A DNA stretch of 50,019 bases from NCBI GenBank assembly GCA_013697635.1, contig JACCWM010000026.1:1-50019 (forward strand), given 5' to 3'. Positions 33,734 to 49,990 of this stretch are shown piece by piece. Under the pieces are notes generated by a model. The model did not search any database. It was not told where the DNA came from and saw only the letters and a program-made list of their open reading frames with translations. Each line of letters opens with the position of its first letter. Position 1 is the stretch's first letter. The translations under genes were made by a program, and so were the position numbers. This DNA is from Lujinxingiaceae bacterium. GTDB lineage: Bacteria; Myxococcota_A; Bradymonadia; Bradymonadales; Bradymonadaceae.

Positions 33734-36700
33734 CTACTCGCTCTCGACCGGCTGGCCTCTCACGAGCTGGGCAACCGAGAGGATCTGGCGGTTGATCTGG
33801 CGGCTCATGAAGGCGCTGCGGTCGCTCTCGTCGGGGATCTGGTCGCGGCGGTGCAGGACGACCTCGCGGGCGCGGCTGATCGCCAGAAGGCGTTCTTCGC
33901 GGTAGGCGGGTTCGTCGGGCAGGATCTGAAAGTGATTGTAGAGCACGTCTTCCATGGCGAAGAGCTCGCCCTGGTCGAGCAGCGCGACGGCTTTGCGCGA
34001 GCGCTCGATCGCGGCATCACGGCGGCCGAGCAGTTTTTGGGCGCGGGCCATCAGGGAGTTGGCAAAGGTTGCGCCCCAGCGCATCTCGGCGGCCTCGGCG
34101 CGCTCCATGGCGTCTTCGGCCTGCATCAGGGCGATCTTGGCGTCATCGCGGGCGGCGCCGGCGAGTTTGACCTGGGCCAGGGCCAGCGTGGCGTGAATGC
34201 TCAAATAGGCATGCGGGATCGAGTCGGCCAGGCGCAAACCCTCGTGCAAGCAACTCTCGGCGGCCGGTAGGTCGCCGGCATCGAGATAGCACACGCCCAG
34301 CGATATCTGGCCGTCGGCGACAACGGCCGTGTTGGCCGTCTTTCGAGCAAGGTGGATGCCGCGCTGCAAATTGGAGAGCGCGCTCTTGTGTTGGCCGAGC
34401 AAAAAGTGGGCGTGGCCGATATTGACGAGCAGGGCCGATTCGTCGCGGCGGTGACCCAGGCGACGGCATTGCTCGAGGGCCGCATCGTAGCGCGCGAGCG
34501 CCTCGGTGAACTCGCCCAGATAGACCAGGGCCAGGCCGGAGTTGAGCAGCAGATAGCGAATCTGCTTGCCGTTCTCGCTGATGCGGGCATGCACGAGCGC
34601 CTCTTCATAGGCCGCAAGCGCCTCGCGATGGCGGCCGGCCTGGCGCAAGATCACGCCGCGCAGGTTGTGGGAGGCGGCAAGGCCCTCGGTCTGCTCGACG
34701 CCCTCGCTGCCACGGTAGACCTCAATGGCGCTTGCCAGCAGCTCGAGGGCGCGCTCACGATGGCCTTCGGTCATCGCGATCATCGCCTTCATGCGCCAGA
34801 TGCGCGCGCGGCCAAGGCGGTCTTCGGCCTGCTCGGCGATCGCGTGGGCGCGGTCGATGAAGCTACGTGAGGTTTTCAAATCCGAGACATCGAAATGATG
34901 GCGAGCCAGACGGATGAGCACGTCGATTTGCTCGCTGGCATTGCCGATCTCGAAGACCAGATCGTGGAGCTGTTCGAGGGTCTGGTGGCTTCGCTCCTGG
35001 TGGCCCAGCTCGAGCAGGGCCGCCTCGCGCAGCTTGAGCACCTTGAGGCGATGAACGTCGAGCTCGCCGGTGCGCTCGAGCACCTTGTCGCAGAGGCGGA
35101 CGCACTCGGCCGCGCCAAAGTGCTCGAAGGCCGCCTGAGCGGCGTCGGTATAGTGTTCGACGGCGGCCTCGCGATCACCTGCGCCATCGAAGTGGCGCGC
35201 GATCAGGGCGCTGCCGTGCAGGCCGAGCTGGTCACGACGTGCGAGCAGGACATTGGCTATGGTGCGATGCAGCGCGGTGGCCTCGTCGGGCACGAGGTTT
35301 CGGCCAGCGACCTCCTGGGTCAAGGCGTTGCAAAAGCGGTACAGGCGCACCTCGGCTGCGACCTGCTCGGGGTCGAAGGCGTCCTCGCCAGGATCCTGGC
35401 CCGGCACATCGGCGCGGTGCAGCAGGCCGAGCTTGACGAGCTGCTCGAGGCCGTCGCTGCTCACCACGGCCTCGTCGAACACCAGCGCGGCATCGGCCAT
35501 GGTAAAGGGCGACCACAACAGCGCGAGCCTTTGCAGGGCCACCCGGTCGGCCAGAGCCAGGTGATCGATGCGCGCGCTGATCAGCCCCTCGACGCTTGCG
35601 GGCAGCCAACGCGCCTCCTCTTCGGCGGTGTTGACGCCCAGATCCTCGGCCTTGTTCTTGAGCAGGCCGCGATCGCCGAGCACCTCGATCACCTCTTTGA
35701 TGTAGAGCGGATTGCCGCCCGAGCAGCGCAGAATCTCGCTGACCAGGTGCTCGTCGTCGATCATGTGCACGCGCAACATGTCGCGAACGAGCCCCTCGGC
35801 CTCCTTGGGGCTGAGCTCGAGCAAGGGCTCGACTTTGACAAAGCGCGCAGCGGCAAACTCCTTCCACTGGCGCTGCTCGAGGTGGGGGCCGCTGTCGCTG
35901 GCCGTGCACAAAAAGAAGGTCGGCGCGCCCTGTCGCGCCTCGAAAAACTGGCCAAGGAACTCGAGCGTCATCGGATCGATGTAGTGGGCATCCTCAATGG
36001 CCAGGATCAGAGGCTTTTTGCCCGCAAAGCGCGAGGTCACCTTGGTGATCGTCAAGAACGTGCGCCGGCGGCGCTCCTCGCCGTCGAGCTCGGCAAAGCG
36101 CCCGGAAGGCGACTTCAGGTTGAAGAGGCTGCCCATCGAGTGCACGAGCAGCCCAAGCTCGGTGTCGTCCTCGTCGGGAAAGAGCGCTTTGATGCGCGTC
36201 TCGAGCGTGTCGCGAAGCTGGCGCAGGTCGTCGCGACCGCCCAGGCGCAGCATCTCGGCCAGCAGCGCGGCGGCGCTGCCCAGGGGCACGTCTTTGTCAA
36301 AGGGGGTGACCACGCCGCGCACCACACGCACGTTTCGCGAGTCCAGGCCGCTCAGGAAGTCCTCGACCAGGGTGGACTTGCCCACGCCCGAGGCCCCCAC
36401 GATGATCAGGGCCGAGGCCGCCTCGTCGAGCAACGTCTGGCGGTAGGCTGCGCGCAGCACCTTGCGGGCAATCTCGCGGCCGTAAAAGGAGTGGTAGGAG
36501 CGACGAAGCTCCTGGATCTGGTCGCGCGGGCTCTTGGGCGCCTCCAGGCGGTAGGCCTGCACGACGTAGCTCTCACCGTCGGTCTCGGAGACGCGCACCT
36601 CGTCGATCTCCTCGCAGTGAAAGTCGCGGCGCACGCGGCGAAACACCTGGCCGCCGAGCAGGCTCTCGCGCGCCATGGCCGACTGCGCCAGGCGCTCGGC

Positions 36701-38191
36701 CAGCTCGTAGCTCGAGCCGTAGAACGACCAGGTGTAGCGTCGCCCGCCGTTGTCGATCTCCTGCTCGAGCAGCACGTCGCCAATCGCGATGCCCAGCGCC
36801 AGGCGAATGGGACTGTCCAGGCTCAGGTTCATGCCGGCCACGGCCTCATGCAGATCCATGGCCATGCGTGCGGCGCGCTCGGAGTCGTTCTCGCTCGAGA
36901 CCGGCACGCCGAGCAAGATCACAAAACCGTTCTCGTTGATCCGGTGGATCACGCCGTCGTTTTTGAACGCGATCGAGTCGACGATTCGCGTGTACTCCTG
37001 GAGCACCTGCAGCCAGCGATCCTGGCCAAGCGTGCTTCGCAGCTCGAGCAGCCCGTGCACCTCGCCGGCGATGATCACGACCTCCTTTCGCTGGCGCGCG
37101 AGCAGCTCGACGCCCTGCTCGCTGAGCTCGGTGGCGATCGGGGTGATCGGCGTGTGGACGTGCTGCACGCGGGTGCCCAGCTCGGCGGTGGTCGCCGAGC
37201 CGCGCTGAAGACTGGTCATCGCCGTGTTGAGCGCGGTCGATCCGGCGCGCGTCGGCCCCGTCGTCGAGGTCTCGTCGAGGTAGGCTTCCACACCCTTGAG
37301 GTGGGCGGCCGTCGAGACGGCGTCAAAAATGTCGCCCAGGCCGTAGAGCACACGCGTCAACTCGACCTGCAGCTCGCGCGCGGTCGCCGACCGATCCTCG
37401 GGCCGCCGCGAGAGCACCTTGTAGAGCAGGTGCTCGAGCGGCGCGGGGATCGCCGCGTTGAGGCTGGCGATGTCCGGAACGACCGCGGACTTGACCAGGC
37501 TCAGGGTCTCCTCTTGCGTGCCCGGGCGAAAAAGCGCTCGCCCGCAGACCATCTCAAAGAGCACCACGCCCAGGCTGAACAGATCGCTGCGCTGATCGAC
37601 GGGCTTTCCCGAGGCTTGCTCGGGGCTCATGTAGCCGAACTTGCCCTTGACGATAAGCGGCGTCTCATCGGCCACGCTGGTCGCCTTGGCGATCCCGAAG
37701 TCGACGATCTTGACCGTGCCGTCGCGCGAGACGAGCAGGTTTTGTGGGCTGATATCGCGGTGCACAAGCTCCAGGCTGTTGCCATAGCTGTCGCAGCGAC
37801 GGTGGGCGTAGTCGAGGCCCTTGGCAAGCTCGACGCCGATGTAGACGGCATCGCCAATGCTCAAGGCGCGTCCAGACTTCTGGCACGCGCGAAGAAGCTG
37901 GCCGATGTTGACCCCGTCGACGTACTCCATGGCCAGATAGTAGTCGGCCCCGACTTTGCCAAAATCATAGATCTGCACGATGTTGGGGTGATTGAGCCCC
38001 ATCGCGATCTTGGCCTCGGCGATGAACATGTCGATAAAGCGCGGGTTCTCCGAGAACTCCGGCAAAATCTTCTTGATCACCAGGATCTTTTCGATGCCCT
38101 CGGCGCCAAAACTCTTGGCCAAGAAGACCTCGGCCATGCCGCCGATGCCGATCTTCTCAATCAGTTGGTATTTGCCAAATTCCGTCGTCAC
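33734..38191 (-). CDS. Giant Ser/Thr kinase with cyclase-homology, AAA ATPase and TPR domains
   Basis: A 1485-residue multidomain signalling protein. Residues 6-285 are a Hanks-type kinase: GIGGMAEV glycine loop (15-22), ATP Lys40 or 41, HRDISPQN with catalytic Asp146, and DFG at 164-166. Residues about 370-550 match class III nucleotide-cyclase homology domains, but the metal-binding Asp positions are not Asp (AGEVHG at 375, NENG at 419), so it is probably catalytically dead. At about 568 an AAA/NACHT-like ATPase starts (YGRE; Walker A GASGVGKST 599-607; LILAIEDAH as Walker B). From about 980 to 1460 there are TPR-type helical repeats. I prefer the GTG at 38191 with AGG upstream, giving the usual VTTEFGKYQL start; a TTG at 38239 is possible. 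Confidence 0.9.
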   Translation of the reverse strand: MTTEFGKYQLIEKIGIGGMAEVFLAKSFGAEGIEKILVIKKILPEFSENPRFIDMFIAEAKIAMGLNHPNIVQIYDFGKVGADYYLAMEYVDGVNIGQLLRACQKSGRALSIGDAVYIGVELAKGLDYAHRRCDSYGNSLELVHRDISPQNLLVSRDGTVKIVDFGIAKATSVADETPLIVKGKFGYMSPEQASGKPVDQRSDLFSLGVVLFEMVCGRALFRPGTQEETLSLVKSAVVPDIASLNAAIPAPLEHLLYKVLSRRPEDRSATARELQVELTRVLYGLGDIFDAVSTAAHLKGVEAYLDETSTTGPTRAGSTALNTAMTSLQRGSATTAELGTRVQHVHTPITPIATELSEQGVELLARQRKEVVIIAGEVHGLLELRSTLGQDRWLQVLQEYTRIVDSIAFKNDGVIHRINENGFVILLGVPVSSENDSERAARMAMDLHEAVAGMNLSLDSPIRLALGIAIGDVLLEQEIDNGGRRYTWSFYGSSYELAERLAQSAMARESLLGGQVFRRVRRDFHCEEIDEVRVSETDGESYVVQAYRLEAPKSPRDQIQELRRSYHSFYGREIARKVLRAAYRQTLLDEAASALIIVGASGVGKSTLVEDFLSGLDSRNVRVVRGVVTPFDKDVPLGSAAALLAEMLRLGGRDDLRQLRDTLETRIKALFPDEDDTELGLLVHSMGSLFNLKSPSGRFAELDGEERRRRTFLTITKVTSRFAGKKPLILAIEDAHYIDPMTLEFLGQFFEARQGAPTFFLCTASDSGPHLEQRQWKEFAAARFVKVEPLLELSPKEAEGLVRDMLRVHMIDDEHLVSEILRCSGGNPLYIKEVIEVLGDRGLLKNKAEDLGVNTAEEEARWLPASVEGLISARIDHLALADRVALQRLALLWSPFTMADAALVFDEAVVSSDGLEQLVKLGLLHRADVPGQDPGEDAFDPEQVAAEVRLYRFCNALTQEVAGRNLVPDEATALHRTIANVLLARRDQLGLHGSALIARHFDGAGDREAAVEHYTDAAQAAFEHFGAAECVRLCDKVLERTGELDVHRLKVLKLREAALLELGHQERSHQTLEQLHDLVFEIGNASEQIDVLIRLARHHFDVSDLKTSRSFIDRAHAIAEQAEDRLGRARIWRMKAMIAMTEGHRERALELLASAIEVYRGSEGVEQTEGLAASHNLRGVILRQAGRHREALAAYEEALVHARISENGKQIRYLLLNSGLALVYLGEFTEALARYDAALEQCRRLGHRRDESALLVNIGHAHFLLGQHKSALSNLQRGIHLARKTANTAVVADGQISLGVCYLDAGDLPAAESCLHEGLRLADSIPHAYLSIHATLALAQVKLAGAARDDAKIALMQAEDAMERAEAAEMRWGATFANSLMARAQKLLGRRDAAIERSRKAVALLDQGELFAMEDVLYNHFQILPDEPAYREERLLAISRAREVVLHRRDQIPDESDRSAFMSRQINRQILSVAQLVRGQPVESE

Positions 38192-38338
38192 GTTTGCCTG
38201 GCGTTCTACAATCTTGGAAACCACCTCGATTTCGTACAAATCGGCGTGGCTCGGATCTTACGCGCAAACACTTCGCAAAAAAACAGGCAATTGTTAAACA
38301 TCTCACCTATGGGCTACGCGAAGATGGCCCGTCGGCGC

Positions 38339-38890
38339 CTATAAAATCGGCGCCCAAGCTTGTTGGCGCAGCGCCTCGTAGGTCACGATCGCCACGGCAT
38401 TGGAGAGATTGAGGCTTCGCACCTTGTCGGTGGTCGGGATGCGAAGGGTGCGATCGGCGAAGCGCTCGAGCATTTCGTCGCTCAAGCCGGTGGTCTCGCT
38501 GCCGAAGACGAGCACACTGCCCGGGCCGAGATCGGCGTCGGTGTAGATTGCGGCGGCCTTTTTGGAGAGAAAATACATGCGCTCGCGCCCGAAGATCGCC
38601 TCGATCGAGGCAAAATCCGGGTGGACGCACAGCTTGACGTTGGGCCAGTAGTCAAGCCCTGCGCGTTTGAGATAGCGGTTGTCGAGCTCAAAGGCCATCG
38701 GGCGCACCAGGTGCAACCAGATGTTCGAGCCAGCACACAGGCGCCCGACGTTTCCGGTGTTGCCCGGTATCTCGGGCCGGTGCAAGACCACGTGCAGGCT
38801 GTTGTCCTCGGGCCCGCCCCAGTGGGGCTGAGGCGGGTGAATGACAAACTGGTAGGGATTTTTGGGGTCGGGCGCGCTGGCGTCGGTCAT
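38339..38890 (-). CDS. trmL: tRNA (cytidine/uridine-34-2'-O)-methyltransferase TrmL-like
   Basis: A 183-residue minimal SPOUT methyltransferase. Motifs LHRPEIPGNTGNVGRLCAGS, LVRPMAFELDNRYLKRAGLDYW, VLVFGSETTGLSDEM and the C-terminal VRSLNLSNAVAIVTYEALRQ match TrmL (YibK), which 2'-O-methylates the wobble base of some tRNA-Leu isoacceptors. TrmL lacks extra RNA-binding domains, as here. I chose the ATG at 38890. The frame stays open to 39811, but that part overlaps the antiporter gene and is a shadow. It lies 35 bp after the antiporter stop and upstream of the kinase gene. Confidence 0.9.
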   Translation of the reverse strand: MTDASAPDPKNPYQFVIHPPQPHWGGPEDNSLHVVLHRPEIPGNTGNVGRLCAGSNIWLHLVRPMAFELDNRYLKRAGLDYWPNVKLCVHPDFASIEAIFGRERMYFLSKKAAAIYTDADLGPGSVLVFGSETTGLSDEMLERFADRTLRIPTTDKVRSLNLSNAVAIVTYEALRQQAWAPIL

Positions 38891-42216: not shown

Positions 42217-42301
42217 GCACGCTGTCTACGCCGTTTTTGGTCCTGGCGACGCCATGAGGCGATCGCCTGAGTTGAGCCATATCGAGCAAAGGAGTGCGCT
42301 G

Positions 42302-43282
42302 GTGAACGTTCTGGTGGTCGGTGCAGGCTCGGTGGGCCAGGTCTTCGGGCACCATTTGCAACTGGCCGGCGCCCATGTGACGTTTTTCGTGCGCGAGCAG
42401 TACGTCGCGGCCACGGGCCAAGGCTTTACCCTCTACCCGCTCAACGATCGCGGTGCGCGCGATCGCCCGGTGCGCTTTGAGGACTTCGAGGTGCTCAGCG
42501 ACATCGCCGCCGTCGCCGAGCGGCCCTGGGACCACGTCTATCTTTGTATCCCGGCCACCGGTCTTCAGGGCGCCTGGTTCGAGGCCCTGGTCAAGGCCGT
42601 CGCCGATGCCGTGCTCGTGAGCCTGACGCCGGGGCTCAACGACCGCGCCTATGTGCACGCACACTTTCGCTCCGAGCGGGTCGTCACCGGCATGATCGGC
42701 TTCTCGAGCTATCCCGGCCCGCTCGAGGGCGAATCGTTGCCCGAACCCGGCACGGTCTACTGGTTTCCGCCCCTGATGCCCTCGCCATTTGAAGGCGCGC
42801 GCGGCTCCGTCGAGAGCGTGGTCGGCCTGTTGCGCCAGGGCGGTCTGCCGGCCACCGTCGACCAGAAGCTGCCCCAAAAAGTGGCCTACCCTACAGCGGC
42901 GTTGATGAGCTTCATCAGTGGCCTCGAGCTCGAGGCCTGGAGCTTCGATGCGCTTCGAAAGAGCGCGCGGCTCAAGGTCGTCTCCGCAGCGATCCGCGAG
43001 ACCGTGGCGATCCTCAACGCGCACCAGAACAGCCGCGCGCCGCTGGCACTTCGCCTGATCGGCTCGCCGGTGTTCAAGCTCGGCTTGCCGCTTGCCCAGG
43101 GCGTGACGCCTTTTGATTTCGAGGCCTTCTTGCGCGTGCACTTTCTCAAGGTGCGCGCCCAGACGCTGGTTCTACTCGCGGACTACATCGCGCTGGCCGA
43201 AAAACACCACCTTCCCTCAAAGCATCTGCAGGCTCTGGCCGGCGATCTCCAGAGCCTGCCCGAGCAAGTCGAGGCCGCTTAA
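42302..43282 (+). CDS. Ketopantoate reductase (PanE/ApbA)-like oxidoreductase
   Basis: A 326-residue NAD(P)-dependent protein. The Rossmann motif VLVVGAGSVGQVFG (residues 3-16) starts the protein, as in PanE, and the C-terminal helical domain (about 185-326) is of the ApbA_C kind. The classical PanE Lys/Glu motif around KxxxN is not clearly matched (QKLPQKVAYPTAA stands in place), so the substrate may differ from 2-dehydropantoate. The GTG at 42302 has AGGAG eight bases upstream; the frame also contains an earlier ATG at 42254 without one. The last 4 bases overlap the convergent aldehyde dehydrogenase gene. Confidence 0.8.
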   Translation: MNVLVVGAGSVGQVFGHHLQLAGAHVTFFVREQYVAATGQGFTLYPLNDRGARDRPVRFEDFEVLSDIAAVAERPWDHVYLCIPATGLQGAWFEALVKAVADAVLVSLTPGLNDRAYVHAHFRSERVVTGMIGFSSYPGPLEGESLPEPGTVYWFPPLMPSPFEGARGSVESVVGLLRQGGLPATVDQKLPQKVAYPTAALMSFISGLELEAWSFDALRKSARLKVVSAAIRETVAILNAHQNSRAPLALRLIGSPVFKLGLPLAQGVTPFDFEAFLRVHFLKVRAQTLVLLADYIALAEKHHLPSKHLQALAGDLQSLPEQVEAA

Positions 43283-44646
43283 CTGCTGCGCAGGTGCCAG
43301 GCCTTGGGCCGGGTGAAGGCGCGAATGCCTTCGACGGACAAGGTAAGGCCCACGCCGGAGTGTCCGCGCCCTGACCAGGGAAGGCGCGGGCTGACCCGAT
43401 CGCAGCAATTCCAGTAGGCGGTGCCCACCGAGATGGACTCGAGAATGCGCTCGGCGCGCGCACGCTCCTTGGTGTAGACACCGGCCGTCAAGCCGTACGG
43501 GGTGTCTTGCATGAGCGCGACGGCTTCGGCGTCGTCTTCGACGCACTGGATGCCAATGACCGGCCCAAAGCTCTCCTCGCGCATGATCTCCATGCTGTGA
43601 TCGACACCGACAAGCACGCTGGGCTGGAAGAAGTTGCCCTTGCCGCCGATGGTCTTGCCGCCACAAAGCAGCGAGGCGCCCTTTTGCAGAGCGTCGGCGA
43701 TTTGCAACTCGAGCACGCTCATCTGATCTTTTCGGGCGAGCGGCCCGATGTAGGTCTCGGCGTGGCGCGGATCGCCGATGTTGAAGGTCTTGACGCGCGC
43801 GACGAAGGCCTCGACGAAGGCATCGAAGACGGCCTCGTGCACGTAGAGGCGCTCGACCGCACAGCAGCTCTGTCCGCTGTTGTAAAACGGCCCGTCGGCC
43901 AGGTTTTGGGCAGCAGCAACCACATCGACGTCGTCGGCGACGTAGACCGGGTCCTTGCCCCCTAGCTCGAGCTGCAGGTGAATCAGGCGCGGGGCGACCT
44001 TCTCGGCTATCTTTTTGCCCGTGGCGTACGAGCCGGTGAAGAACACCGCGTCGACCGCTTCGTCGAGCAGCAGCGAGCCGACCTCGCCGGCGCCAACAAC
44101 CGGCTGGAACACCTCGCGCGGCACGCCGGCCTCCCAGAGCAGCTCGGCTATCGCCAGACCGGTGAGGGTGGCAAACTCTGAGGGCTTGTAGAGCACGGCG
44201 TTGCCGGTCAAGAGTGCCGGCACAAAGACATTCGCACCGACAAAGTAGGGATAATTCCATGCCGAAATATTGGCAATCACACCCAGCGGCTCACGGGTGA
44301 TGCGCTCGACCATGCTCGCCGACTCCGCAAGCGTCTCGGCTGCAAGCGCTGCTGCGACGTGCTCGACAAAGAAGTCGATTCGATCGCCTGTGGCACGCAC
44401 CTCGCCCAGCGCCTGGCTGATCGGCTTGCCCATCTCGAGGCTCAAGGTCGCCGCCAGAGACTCGGAACGCTCGCTGAGCAAATCACGCAATTTGACGAGC
44501 GCTGCCGTGCGCTCCGTTAGTGGCCGCGCGGCCCATGCGGGCTGAGCACTTTTGGCATCGGAAAACTTCTGGGCAACCGAGGCCTGCGTGTCGGTCTCGA
44601 CGCGCTGAATGAGCTCGCCGCTTGCCGGATTTAAGAGTTCGAGCAT
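43279..44646 (-). CDS. Aldehyde dehydrogenase of the gamma-glutamyl amine/amino-alcohol operon
   Basis: A 455-residue NAD(P)+-dependent ALDH-superfamily enzyme. Motifs are ISAWNYPYFV (about 127), FTGSYATGKKIAEK (nucleotide fold, 203-216), LELGGKDP with the general-base Glu227, and NSGQSCCAVERL with the catalytic Cys261. EESFGPVIGI is also present. It is last in the four-gene operon. Inferred role: oxidise a gamma-glutamyl aldehyde, for instance gamma-glutamylaminoacetaldehyde to gamma-glutamylglycine, or, as PuuC, a gamma-glutamyl-aminobutyraldehyde. The ATG at 44646 has GGAG seven bases upstream; the frame's earlier ATG at 44685 would overlap the upstream gene. Confidence 0.92.
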   Translation of the reverse strand: MLELLNPASGELIQRVETDTQASVAQKFSDAKSAQPAWAARPLTERTAALVKLRDLLSERSESLAATLSLEMGKPISQALGEVRATGDRIDFFVEHVAAALAAETLAESASMVERITREPLGVIANISAWNYPYFVGANVFVPALLTGNAVLYKPSEFATLTGLAIAELLWEAGVPREVFQPVVGAGEVGSLLLDEAVDAVFFTGSYATGKKIAEKVAPRLIHLQLELGGKDPVYVADDVDVVAAAQNLADGPFYNSGQSCCAVERLYVHEAVFDAFVEAFVARVKTFNIGDPRHAETYIGPLARKDQMSVLELQIADALQKGASLLCGGKTIGGKGNFFQPSVLVGVDHSMEIMREESFGPVIGIQCVEDDAEAVALMQDTPYGLTAGVYTKERARAERILESISVGTAYWNCCDRVSPRLPWSGRGHSGVGLTLSVEGIRAFTRPKAWHLRSS

Positions 44647-44681
44647 GTGTTTCTCCAAATGAATTGAACGGTCGGGTTGAA

Positions 44682-45487
44682 TCAAAGGTCTCGTCGCAGC
44701 CTGACGGCGCGAAGAAAGTCTTCCATGATGGGGCGACGATCGAGCAGGCTTGTGTCCTCGGGATGCTGAAACTCAGGATGCCACTGCACGCCGACGACGT
44801 AGGGACCAAAGCTCTCCGAGCTCTGCAGGCGTACGGCCTCGATGATGTCGTCGACCACCGAGCGGGCCTGGACTACTAGCCCCTGGCCCAGTTCGGCGAT
44901 CGCCTGATGGTGAACACTGGGTACGAGGGCGCGCACGACGCCCGGATAAAGATGTTGCAGCCAGGAGCCCTCGGTGATCACGATCTCGTGGCGGTTTCGC
45001 TCGTAATTGCCGGCGTGGCGATGGCACAGCTCGCTTGGAACCTGGGTGGGCAGATCCTGGTAGAGCGTGCCTCCCAGCGCTACGTTGACCACCTGGTGGC
45101 CGCGGCAGATGCCCAAGACGGGCTTGTTTTTGGCGATACAAAGGCGCACTAACTCGAGCTCGTAGGCATCGCGCACGGCGTCACCGGACCACTCCGGGCG
45201 AAGCGGCTGTTGCCCATAGCTGAGCGGGCTCATATCGACGCCGCCCTGCAAGACCAGGCCATCGATGCACTCCACGGCGTCGGACAAACCAACGGAGAAC
45301 TCCCGCGGATCGCTGGCCACGGGGATCATCATGGGCAGCGCCGCGCTTGCCATGACGTACTCGGCCATGGACTGCTCCAAATAGAGCAAGGGCCGGCCAT
45401 TGAAGGTCGTGCGTTCTGCGTCCTGGTGAAACAAGCAGGCCGAGACGCCAATGATCGGTATTCGGCCCTCCTTGCGTTCGGGGCTAC

Positions 45488-45491
<4 letters not shown>
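44682..45491 (-). CDS. PuuD-like class I glutamine amidotransferase (gamma-glutamyl amide hydrolase)
   Basis: A 269-residue peptidase C26-type enzyme. VLGICRGHQVVNVALGG contains the nucleophile Cys129, and VVGVQWHPEF supplies His238 and Glu240 of the triad. The family hydrolyses gamma-glutamyl amides such as gamma-glutamyl-GABA. In this operon it would release glutamate from the oxidised product. Its ATG overlaps the alcohol dehydrogenase stop (ATGA), so the two are translationally coupled. Thirty-five bp separate it from the aldehyde dehydrogenase. Confidence 0.92.
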
Positions 45492-46630
<1,139 letters not shown>

Positions 46631-46673
46631 ACTTACTCGTTCCTCGCAAAATTAAGGTGGGGGCGCCACGTGC

Positions 46674-48044
46674 TCAGATGATTTCGAAATAACGTTTGAG
46701 TTCCCAGTTGGTTACCGCGCGTTGGTGCTGCTCCCACTCCCACTGGCGGGTGGCGGCGAAGTGGTCGATGAACGTGTCGCCAAAGAGCTCGCGGGCGAGC
46801 TCGGAGCTGCGCATGGCCTGGGTCGCCTCACCCAGGTTGACCGGCAGCGCGCGCGCGCCTTCGACCTCGTAGGCGTTTCCGACCACCGCCACGTCGGTGA
46901 GTTTGAGCCCTTTCTTGATCCCATACAAGCCGCTGGCGAGCGCGGCGGCAATTCCAAGGTAGGGATTGATGTCGGCGCCCGAGATGCGCGTCTCGAGGCG
47001 CGTGGATCTAGGCGATCCCGGGATCACGCGCAAGGCCGGCGTGCGGTTGTCCACACCCCAGGTCACGTGCGTGGGCGCCCACAACCCCTTGACCAGGCGC
47101 TTGTAGCTGTTGATCGTCGGCGCATAAAAAGGCAGCAGATCGCTCAGGCCCAGCAGTTGGCCTGCCAGATAGCTCTCGAAGATCGCGCTCATCGTGTGGC
47201 GACCCTTGGCGTCGTAGAAGAGGTTCTCGCCGGCCTCACTCCACAGACTCTGGTGCATGTGCCCGCTGCATCCGGGCAGCTTGGAGTCGACCTTGGCCAT
47301 GAAGGTCGCCATGATCCCAAAGCGGTAGGCGATCTCCTTGGCCGCCGTCTTGAACAAGACGCCGCGATCGGCGGCCTCGAGCGGATCGTCATAGAGGATG
47401 GCCACCTCATAGACGCCCGGGCCGGTCTCGGTGTGCAGGCCCTCGATCGGGATGCCAAAGGCCTCCATCTCTTCCATCAGCGCGCGAAAAAACCCGGCGT
47501 TGTTGCTCGTTCGCAAGATCGAGTAGCCGAACATGCCTGGCGTCAGGGGCTCGAGTCCCACAAAACCCTTGTCGTTGGCACTCTTGGGTGTCTCCAAGAA
47601 GTTGAACCACTCGAACTCCATGCCAAATTTCGGGCTAAAGCCCATGTCTTTGGCCTCGGCGATCGTGCGCTTGAGCAGTTGGCGCGGGCAGATCGCCAGC
47701 GCTTGGCCGTCGGCGTCGACGAAATCACCGAGAAAAAACGGAACGTCGTTATCCCAGGGCACCTTGCGGTAGGTCGACAGGTCGATTTTCGCGAGCACGT
47801 CTGGATAGCCCGTATGCCAGCCCGTGTAGTCGACCTTGTCGTAGCAGACATCGGCGCTGTCCCAGCCAAAGACGACGTTGCAAAAACCAAAGCCGCTCTC
47901 GGCAGCCGAGAGAAACTTCGAGGTGTGCATGAACTTGCCACGCAGGATCCCGTCGATATCGGCCGCCGCCACGCGCACGCGCGAGGTGCCGCTGGCCTTG
48001 ACCTGCTCTAAGATTTCCTCGGCTGATAGCCCTCGCGTTGCCAT
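46674..48044 (-). CDS. Glutamine-synthetase-like gamma-glutamyl amine ligase (PuuA/GlnA4-like)
   Basis: A 456-residue glutamine-synthetase-family enzyme. The short Gln-synt N-domain carries DIDGILRGKFMH; the catalytic domain has the metal-binding KFGMEFEWF, ETGPGVYEVAI, SGHMHQSLWS, then SYKRLVKGLWAPTHVTWGVDNRTPALRV and the Arg flap region ETRISGADINPYLGIAAALASGL. It lacks the adenylation loop and strict ammonia pocket of housekeeping GlnA, and resembles PuuA and the actinobacterial GlnA4 gamma-glutamylethanolamide synthetase. It would attach glutamate to an amine. The ATG at 48044 has GGAG upstream and is preferred over the earlier ATG at 48068. First gene of the operon. Confidence 0.9.
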   Translation of the reverse strand: MATRGLSAEEILEQVKASGTSRVRVAAADIDGILRGKFMHTSKFLSAAESGFGFCNVVFGWDSADVCYDKVDYTGWHTGYPDVLAKIDLSTYRKVPWDNDVPFFLGDFVDADGQALAICPRQLLKRTIAEAKDMGFSPKFGMEFEWFNFLETPKSANDKGFVGLEPLTPGMFGYSILRTSNNAGFFRALMEEMEAFGIPIEGLHTETGPGVYEVAILYDDPLEAADRGVLFKTAAKEIAYRFGIMATFMAKVDSKLPGCSGHMHQSLWSEAGENLFYDAKGRHTMSAIFESYLAGQLLGLSDLLPFYAPTINSYKRLVKGLWAPTHVTWGVDNRTPALRVIPGSPRSTRLETRISGADINPYLGIAAALASGLYGIKKGLKLTDVAVVGNAYEVEGARALPVNLGEATQAMRSSELARELFGDTFIDHFAATRQWEWEQHQRAVTNWELKRYFEII

Positions 48045-48097
48045 GATCGCTCCATGATTTTGGGACAATGTATTTTGTACGACTGACGATGCGCGCT

Positions 48098-48126
48098 ATT
48101 ATGCCACGGCGTGTGGCCCAAAACAA
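48098..48126 (-). promoter_or_regulatory. Putative promoter of the gamma-glutamylation operon
   Basis: TTGTTT (48121-48126) and CATAAT (48098-48103), 17 bases apart on the minus strand, with the start about 45 bases before the ATG at 48044. The spacer contains the inverted repeat GCCAC-5-GTGGC, a possible regulator site. Confidence 0.5.
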
Positions 48127-48247: not shown

Positions 48248-49990
48248 ATGTACCGACTTACCACAGCATCCATCGTCGCCTTGGTCGCCCTTGTGGCCAC
48301 CAGCGCCCTTGCGTGCCAAGTTCATAAACACACGGTGCCTCAGCCACCGGTCGTTGAGATTCCCCAGGCCCCGATTGAGGGCGAAGAAGAAGACGCGGTC
48401 GATCAAGGCCCGATCTATCTTTCAACGGCGATGCGCGTGCAGTCCGACGTCGAGCTTGCCGCCAACCCCGCGCACTTCGGCCAGTTCAAAGGTCGAACCG
48501 ACCTCTTGCTTCGTCGCGACTACGGCATCAATCGCAACACATGCGACGGCTACATCGCGCGCCGCCCGGCCATGGTCGTCGATGCGCCCAACGGCTACGA
48601 ACACCTCAAGATCACCGCTCATGGCGACGTCGACGTTTTGTTCGTCGAATTCTCCAACCGTGAGTATCTGTGCACCATTCGTCGCCCCGGTGGCCAAGAC
48701 CCGGCGATCGAGACGCGCAATTGGCCCAAGGGGCCCTATCGTATCTATGTCGGCCACCGCGAGCAGCTCAAGGAGATCGACTACTCCTTGACCTTCGAGA
48801 ATCTCTCCAAGCCGATTACGGTCGATTGGCTCGATGCCTCGCTGCCGACCATCACGATCGACAGCGATATGAGTAAGCCCTCATTTGTCCCTGTCAACCT
48901 GGCCGGTGAGCCCAACGCCGATCGCGACGCCCAGCATGGCGACCACTCGTGCGCCAGCCACAGCGGGCCGATGAAGTATTTGCTCACCCCCGATGTGCGC
49001 CTCGATGTGCGCCAACAGGCCGTGGTCACGCTGGGTATTCGTGCCAACGCCCCGGCGATGATGACCTTGATTGGCCCGGTACCCTCGGACCGACGCAACA
49101 TCCCGGTGCAGTGTTTGCCCAGCTGGAACGAATCACTTGATCTGGCACCGGGCACCTACTTTGTGCGCGTGGGCGTCGATCCAGACAAGGCTCCGAGCAC
49201 TCTCAACTTCTTTGCACACGGCGCGGCGGCCGGCCTCGATCCGCTGGCCACCTTCCCCAACGTGCCCGAAGGCCGCCCGGTTGCCGAGCGCATGCTCACG
49301 CTGCACTACCCCTTCCTCAAGACCAACGACTTGCTGACCGACGATCGCATCCGCCAGCAACTCTTCGTCAACGCGCCTTCGTCACTCTATGTCGTGGCGC
49401 GCGAGAACCTTGGAAGCAACTCGCCGGCGACCGTCTTTTTGGGCTCGCCGGTGCCAGGCGATCACATCCTCGACGACGGGCGCGCCTTTGAGTTTCCCGT
49501 CAAGGACGAGCTCTTGCTCATGCTCAATGAGGAGAATCTCGTGCTCGCCGCCGACGGCAGCCTCTTTGTCATCGACAGCAAGCACCTCAAGCCGGCCCAG
49601 CAGGCCGACGCCATCGCCCTGCCCCCGGCAGCGCGCAACTCGCAGAGCTACTTTCGCCATGCGATGACCCTGGCCGGCACCGACGATCAGGGACGCATCG
49701 AGCAGCATGCCCAGCGCCACGATCGCTACAAGCAGTGCGCCGACGGCATCATGGTGCGCATCCAGCCCCAGATCGAAACGCTTAACAAAGACGCCGCGGC
49801 CAACCGCGACCAGATCGAGCGGATCACGACCGAAGCCGAGCAGCGCGCCCAGCGCAACTGCGGGCTCGTGCGCCTCGAAGAAGAGGATCGCCGCATGTGG
49901 CGCCAACTCGAGGACAGCCGTACCCGTCGTCGCACGGACGCCCTGCAGCAGGTGCGTGCTCGCCTGGCCGACCTGGTGCTCGTCAAGTAA
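48248..49990 (+). CDS. Exported protein, possible lipoprotein, of unknown function
   Basis: A 580-residue protein. The signal peptide (about 1-23) ends SALAC; the Cys at +1 with Ala at -1 could be a lipobox, though the -3 position is not the usual Leu, so plain secretion is also possible. The body has three or four beta-rich units with PPC-like flavour (NGYEHLKITAHGDVDVLFVEF; LDLAPGTYFVRVGVD). The last 110 residues form a charged helical, probably coiled-coil, tail (QIETLNKDAAANRDQIERITTEAEQRAQRNC...). No catalytic motif recognised. AGGAG lies six bases before the ATG. Shares its upstream region with the divergent gamma-glutamylation operon. Only 29 bp follow to the window end. Confidence 0.8.
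   Translation: MYRLTTASIVALVALVATSALACQVHKHTVPQPPVVEIPQAPIEGEEEDAVDQGPIYLSTAMRVQSDVELAANPAHFGQFKGRTDLLLRRDYGINRNTCDGYIARRPAMVVDAPNGYEHLKITAHGDVDVLFVEFSNREYLCTIRRPGGQDPAIETRNWPKGPYRIYVGHREQLKEIDYSLTFENLSKPITVDWLDASLPTITIDSDMSKPSFVPVNLAGEPNADRDAQHGDHSCASHSGPMKYLLTPDVRLDVRQQAVVTLGIRANAPAMMTLIGPVPSDRRNIPVQCLPSWNESLDLAPGTYFVRVGVDPDKAPSTLNFFAHGAAAGLDPLATFPNVPEGRPVAERMLTLHYPFLKTNDLLTDDRIRQQLFVNAPSSLYVVARENLGSNSPATVFLGSPVPGDHILDDGRAFEFPVKDELLLMLNEENLVLAADGSLFVIDSKHLKPAQQADAIALPPAARNSQSYFRHAMTLAGTDDQGRIEQHAQRHDRYKQCADGIMVRIQPQIETLNKDAAANRDQIERITTEAEQRAQRNCGLVRLEEEDRRMWRQLEDSRTRRRTDALQQVRARLADLVLVK

What the first reader, a model, noticed from the sequence alone, without database searches (positions are those of the whole stretch)
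43279..48126. Four-gene operon that could catabolise an amino alcohol by gamma-glutamylation
A glutamine-synthetase-like ligase, a Fe-type alcohol dehydrogenase, a PuuD-like gamma-glutamyl hydrolase and an aldehyde dehydrogenase lie in one minus-strand unit, with ATGA coupling between two of them and one promoter. The putrescine Puu route needs a flavin oxidase (PuuB) and none is here; an alcohol dehydrogenase sits in its place. The simplest reading is gamma-glutamylation of an amino alcohol, oxidation of its OH to aldehyde then acid, and hydrolysis to glutamate plus an amino acid (glycine, if the substrate is ethanolamine). Actinobacterial GlnA4 performs a comparable first step. The complete set as one compact operon outside Actinobacteria looks little described.
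Basis: partly seen in the sequence, partly recalled or inferred. Interest (0 to 1): 0.7.

Follow-up and report, generated by a model that had tools for sequence, protein, structure and literature searches.

The report
Ethanolamine gamma-glutamylation operon, PuuD-type hydrolase
Four neighbouring genes most likely let this bacterium turn ethanolamine, a piece of membrane lipids, into glycine by attaching glutamate to it first; the route is already known from other bacteria, but here it comes in a version with a different last enzyme that turns out to be common in several bacterial phyla.

Summary
The operon is real: ligase (glutamine-synthetase fold), iron-type alcohol dehydrogenase, PuuD-like hydrolase and aldehyde dehydrogenase, all on the minus strand. 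The ligase is not a glutamine synthetase: it lies outside GlnA in a tree, and the ammonium-pocket Glu327 is Trp in all 34 sequences checked. The genome has no PuuB-type oxidase and no ethanolamine ammonia-lyase, this is its only Fe-ADH, and it encodes one ethanolamine permease (604 bits, cut-off 382) on another contig. In other genomes the same four genes occur in the same order (40 of 65 loci with enough sequence), and a gene of a family named ethanolamine permease sits directly upstream of the ligase in 36 of 68. So ethanolamine to glycine plus glutamate is the best reading. What differs here is a separate ligase clade, a PuuD-type (PF07722) instead of a formylglutamate-amidohydrolase-type (PF05013) hydrolase, and an APC permease instead of a TRAP transporter: a widespread variant of a known pathway for which I found no description. 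No enzyme was assayed.

The parts
46674..48044 (-). glutamine-synthetase-fold ligase, proposed gamma-glutamylethanolamide synthetase (456 aa, P0001)
   Evidence: Pfam Gln-synt_C 325.7 bits; below every NCBIfam equivalog cut-off for GlnA and PuuA; metal, Glu and ATP residues kept, E327 replaced by W322; tree outside GlnA
45488..46630 (-). iron-type alcohol dehydrogenase, proposed gamma-glutamylethanolamide dehydrogenase (380 aa, P0002)
   Evidence: Pfam Fe-ADH; metal-ligand motifs DALSH at 198 and HSLAH at 266; only Fe-ADH over the cut-off in the genome; 42% identical to the Fe-ADH of a Rhodobacteraceae TRAP/ligase operon
44682..45491 (-). PuuD-like class I amidotransferase-fold hydrolase, proposed gamma-glutamylglycine hydrolase (269 aa, P0003)
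   Evidence: Pfam Peptidase_C26 190.3 bits; GICRGHQ at 127 and HPE at 238/243 motifs; 29% identical to E. coli PuuD
43279..44646 (-). aldehyde dehydrogenase, proposed gamma-glutamyl-aminoacetaldehyde dehydrogenase (455 aa, P0004)
   Evidence: Pfam Aldedh 450.6 bits; LELGGK at 226 and GQSC at 258; 40% identical to the ALDH of the Rhodobacteraceae operon, 32% to PuuC
45488..45491 (-). ATGA stop-start overlap between the dehydrogenase and hydrolase genes
   Evidence: sequence

Best explanation
An ethanolamine utilisation operon working by gamma-glutamylation. Step 1 (inferred): the ligase joins the gamma-carboxyl of glutamate to ethanolamine, using ATP, giving gamma-glutamylethanolamide. Step 2 (inferred): the Fe-ADH oxidises the free hydroxyl to the aldehyde. 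Step 3 (inferred): the ALDH oxidises this to gamma-glutamylglycine. Step 4 (inferred): the PuuD-like hydrolase splits it into glutamate, which is recycled, and glycine. Ethanolamine probably enters through the ethanolamine-permease-family protein encoded on contig C42 of the same genome. It is a variant of the known Chromohalobacter/Phaeobacter pathway, with a ligase of a separate clade and a PuuD-type hydrolase in place of a formylglutamate-amidohydrolase-type one. Shown here: gene content, order, conservation, residues, phylogeny, genome context. Not shown: any activity or substrate.
For: Ligase not GlnA: tree; E327 to W in 34 of 34 aligned sequences, with metal, Glu and ATP residues kept; Trp at this position is also reported for PauA7, and a nonpolar Phe for GlnA4 (PMC6529630). 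Genome: no EutB; DAO-family oxidases resolve to two ThiO, a GlpD-like protein and a DAO-Rieske fusion, not PuuB; single Fe-ADH; one TIGR00908 ethanolamine permease at 603.9 bits, cut-off 381.75. Context elsewhere: same four genes in the same order in 40 of 65 loci; a permease gene directly upstream in 36 of 68, four of four scored full-length members above the TIGR00908 cut-off at 424-625 bits. Among 95 related genomes, 7 of the 9 with the permease also have the ligase, against 7 of 86 without it (Fisher p about 1e-5). Precedent for every step: PMC10132767, PMC9397018.
Against: The permease is not linked to the operon in this genome (contig C42), and no regulator or transporter sits in the operon. 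The co-occurrence count is not corrected for kinship: the seven shared genomes fall in four genera, and one (G062) has a ligase of the other clade. The ligase clade is not sister to the Chromohalobacter ethanolamine ligase. In 9 mostly burkholderial loci the neighbours are 2-aminoethylphosphonate genes, and in Mucilaginibacter the ligase stands without the other three genes, so the clade need not have one substrate. The family name 'ethanolamine permease' is an annotation, not a test.
Confidence: 0.8

Rival explanations
1. Same chemistry, but the natural substrate is another amino alcohol such as 3-aminopropanol, alaninol or a hydroxylated aminophosphonate; the end product would be another amino acid.
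For: Sequence does not fix the substrate; the ligase clade is separate from the Chromohalobacter one; in some Burkholderiales the cluster lies beside PhnW and the PhnU2 transporter gene for 2-aminoethylphosphonate. Related ligases can be promiscuous (1-naphthylamine ligase, PMC11335346, title and abstract).
Against: The recurrent neighbour is a TIGR00908 ethanolamine permease, and this genome has one.
Confidence: 0.13
2. A putrescine or polyamine (Puu-type) pathway whose oxidase lies elsewhere.
For: PuuD-like and PuuC-like homology (29% and 32%).
Against: Ligase scores 194.8 bits against the gamma-glutamylputrescine synthetase cut-off of 650; no PuuB-type oxidase found; an alcohol dehydrogenase is conserved in the cluster and has no role in Puu chemistry.
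Confidence: 0.03
3. Alkylamine route of the isopropylamine (Ipu) kind.
For: 42% identity to a ligase annotated IpuC; a hydrolase and dehydrogenases also lie near that gene.
Against: The annotated IpuC locus carries cytochrome P450 and ferredoxin genes that could hydroxylate the alkyl group; none is in the window operon.
Confidence: 0.02
4. The ligase is a second glutamine synthetase and the other genes are unrelated.
For: Fold and metal/ATP/Glu residues of glutamine synthetase.
Against: Below the GlnA cut-off (224 of 429 bits); E327 lost; a standard GlnA sits on contig C205; four-gene set conserved across phyla.
Confidence: 0.01

Closest known systems
Gamma-glutamylation pathway for ethanolamine in Chromohalobacter salexigens (ligase Csal_0679, PDB 5dm3) and Phaeobacter MED193_10026-10056
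   Same: Ligase PF00120 + Fe-ADH PF00465 + ALDH PF00171 + a gamma-glutamylglycine hydrolase; same proposed four steps (PMC10132767; PMC9397018 Table 2).
   Different: Hydrolase is PF07722 here, PF05013 there; TRAP transporter EtoVWX there, APC permease family here (unlinked); ligase in another well-supported clade, about 38% identical to a ligase of that clade; gene order differs.
Streptomyces coelicolor GlnA4 cluster (SCO1611-SCO1615)
   Same: GlnA4 was shown to glutamylate ethanolamine; the later steps are proposed to be the same (PMC6529630).
Legionella lytica plasmid cluster L029:8977-13624 (ligase, ALDH, Fe-ADH, amidotransferase-like protein)
   Same: Ligase 48%, Fe-ADH 43%, ALDH 38% identical; the same kinds of genes.
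   Different: Different gene order and only a short match in the hydrolase.
E. coli Puu pathway (PuuA, PuuB, PuuC, PuuD)
   Same: Glutamylate, oxidise, hydrolyse logic; hydrolase and ALDH homologous.
   Different: PuuB flavin oxidase replaced by an alcohol dehydrogenase; ligase only 30% identical to PuuA.

Membership tests
Ethanolamine gamma-glutamylation pathway (Chromohalobacter/Phaeobacter type) | PF00120 ligase that is not a glutamine synthetase | tested here: met
Ethanolamine gamma-glutamylation pathway (Chromohalobacter/Phaeobacter type) | Linked PF00465 Fe-ADH and PF00171 ALDH | tested here: met
Ethanolamine gamma-glutamylation pathway (Chromohalobacter/Phaeobacter type) | PF05013 gamma-glutamylglycine amidohydrolase in the operon | tested here: not met
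   PF07722 protein instead; the genome's one clear PF05013 protein is on contig C174 and only 25% identical to the operon type
Ethanolamine gamma-glutamylation pathway (Chromohalobacter/Phaeobacter type) | Linked EtoVWX TRAP transporter | tested here: not met
   none among the operon genes or the flanking ORFs searched against Pfam; an APC ethanolamine permease lies elsewhere in the genome
Ethanolamine gamma-glutamylation pathway (Chromohalobacter/Phaeobacter type) | Ligase in the same clade as Csal_0679 | tested here: not met
   separate supported clades
Ethanolamine gamma-glutamylation pathway (Chromohalobacter/Phaeobacter type) | Ligase makes gamma-glutamylethanolamide | not testable with these tools
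   needs an enzyme assay
Puu putrescine pathway | PuuA above the equivalog cut-off | tested here: not met
   194.8 of 650 bits
Puu putrescine pathway | PuuB flavin oxidase | tested here: not met
Glutamine synthetase (GlnA) | GlnA equivalog score and E327/Y179 ammonium pocket | tested here: not met
   224.4 of 429.15 bits; W322 at E327, Y179 loop deleted
Eut ethanolamine ammonia-lyase pathway | EutB | tested here: not met
   no match in the genome

The most novel reading that the evidence does not exclude
A second lineage of the ethanolamine gamma-glutamylation pathway, with its own ligase clade, a PuuD-type hydrolase and often an APC ethanolamine permease, is widespread in Bacteroidota, Burkholderiales, Bdellovibrionota and Myxococcota and has been overlooked because surveys tracked the TRAP binding protein EtoX.
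Probability: 0.6. Interest if true: 0.45.

Novelty: new variant of a known kind. Interest (0 to 1): 0.35.

Why it matters
If right, B12-independent use of ethanolamine, the head group of a major membrane lipid, is more common among soil and freshwater bacteria than counts based on Eut or EtoX suggest. The ligase clade plus the four-gene order gives a usable marker, and several carriers of the full set (Pedobacter, Chitinophaga, Niabella) are cultured strains, so growth tests are straightforward.

Tried and rejected
Putrescine/Puu reading: rejected on the PuuA score and lack of PuuB. Housekeeping glutamine synthetase: rejected. Eut pathway: no EutB; nor in the two related genomes that have the permease without the ligase, so EutB does not explain those. 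Convergent downstream gene 42254-43282 (ApbA/PanE-like weak match): on the other strand, not part of the operon. An alignment with two loci on the wrong strand was discarded and redone. Vetting et al. 2015 could not be opened; its content is taken from papers that cite it. The predicted ligase structure (mean pLDDT 88.8) matches glutamine-synthetase folds including Csal_0679 but does not discriminate substrates. GlnA4 of S. coelicolor was not in hand for the tree.

Full report
Observation. The four genes are there as described: ligase 46674-48044, Fe-ADH 45488-46630, PuuD-like hydrolase 44682-45491, ALDH 43279-44646, all on the minus strand. Gaps are 43 bases, an ATGA overlap, and 35 bases. 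The claimed promoter is not supported by a consensus scan. The window is the whole of contig C202 of a 6.2 Mb draft genome. Operon G+C (63.1%) equals that of the window (62.8%).

Ligase. It belongs to the glutamine-synthetase fold but is below all NCBIfam equivalog cut-offs for GlnA and PuuA. The genome's ordinary GlnA is elsewhere, on contig C205. Against E. coli GlnA, all metal ligands, the Arg residues and the ATP-binding His/Arg are kept, while E327 of the ammonium pocket is Trp322 and the Y179 loop is missing. Trp322 is invariant in 34 of 34 aligned sequences. A paper on GlnA4 describes the loss of E327, with Trp in PauA7 and Phe in GlnA4, as a feature of these amine ligases (PMC6529630). 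In a maximum-likelihood tree the ligase sits in a supported clade of 17 rows (100/99), next to a Legionella/Burkholderia/Paracoccus group; the Chromohalobacter 5dm3 type forms another supported clade. Placement of PuuA is unsure because of its long branch.

Known pathway. Csal_0679 is the 5dm3 protein (title) and its neighbour by locus number, Csal_0678, is the ethanolamine-binding TRAP protein used in PMC10132767. That paper reports a Phaeobacter operon, induced on phosphorylethanolamine, with ethanolamine gamma-glutamylase, gamma-glutamylethanolamide dehydrogenase, aldehyde dehydrogenase and gamma-glutamylglycine amidohydrolase, and says that closely related genes act in C. salexigens and Agrobacterium. 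PMC9397018 Table 2 gives the Chromohalobacter families: PF00120, PF00465, PF00171, PF05013. Annotated relatives on alphaproteobacterial plasmids show the set with Fe-ADH. The pathway outside Actinobacteria is therefore not new.

Variant. The window's hydrolase is PF07722 (PuuD-like), not PF05013. Carriers include records labelled Bacteroidota, Burkholderiales, Bdellovibrionota and Planctomycetota. The same order is seen in a genome of the window's own order (L033). None of 20 genomes of the same family has the ligase, so the operon is patchy.

Substrate. Directly upstream of the ligase in 36 of 68 loci is one permease family. Four full-length members score 424-625 bits against TIGR00908, ethanolamine permease, cut-off 381.75. 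The window's genome has one such protein at 603.9 bits on contig C42, not linked to other ethanolamine genes that I recognised. It lacks EutB. Among 95 relatives, the permease is in 9 genomes and the ligase in 14, both in 7; the Fisher p of about 1e-5 ignores kinship, the seven falling in four genera. Two genomes with the permease lack both the ligase and EutB.

Other enzymes. The Fe-ADH is the only one over the cut-off in the genome. In a tree the window-type Fe-ADHs and those of the Rhodobacteraceae/Legionella ligase operons are placed together, apart from FucO, EutG and YiaY, with moderate support (85/77). The DAO-family flavoproteins of the genome with full-length matches are two ThiO-type proteins, a GlpD-like protein and a DAO-Rieske fusion 26% identical to PuuB.

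Conclusion. Ethanolamine to glycine by gamma-glutamylation is the most likely function (0.8). All catalytic steps are inferred. The interest lies in the spread of a variant with its own ligase clade and a swapped hydrolase; I found no paper on it in the held library, which lacks most subscription journals.

Noticed in passing
L115:5092-12740, L094:6830-9332, L095:5113-12570 and other mostly burkholderial loci: In 9 loci the ligase cluster lies next to 2-aminoethylphosphonate genes (PhnW transaminase above its cut-off, PhnU2-type permease), suggesting a link between aminophosphonate and ethanolamine use or another substrate.
   Followed up: partly
L106:9369-10487, L125:5034-5888, L120:236-1021 (Mucilaginibacter and relatives): In 12 loci a ligase of the same clade stands without the three other enzymes but beside a protein without an NCBIfam match that looks like a phosphotransferase; 10-11 loci also have a second glutamine-synthetase-like protein and a HAD-like phosphatase nearby. 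Possibly a different glutamylation pathway.
   Followed up: no
window 42254-43282 (+): ApbA/PanE-like protein, weak match only, convergent with the operon and ending against the ALDH gene.
   Followed up: no
window 34895-38344 and 48248-49990 (+): Two large proteins (1149 and 580 aa) without any Pfam match; the second is divergent from the operon and begins like a secreted protein.
   Followed up: no
G000 contig C45 (L021:1246-2931): DAO oxidase fused to a Rieske-like domain; nearest to PuuB in this genome but only 26% identical.
   Followed up: partly
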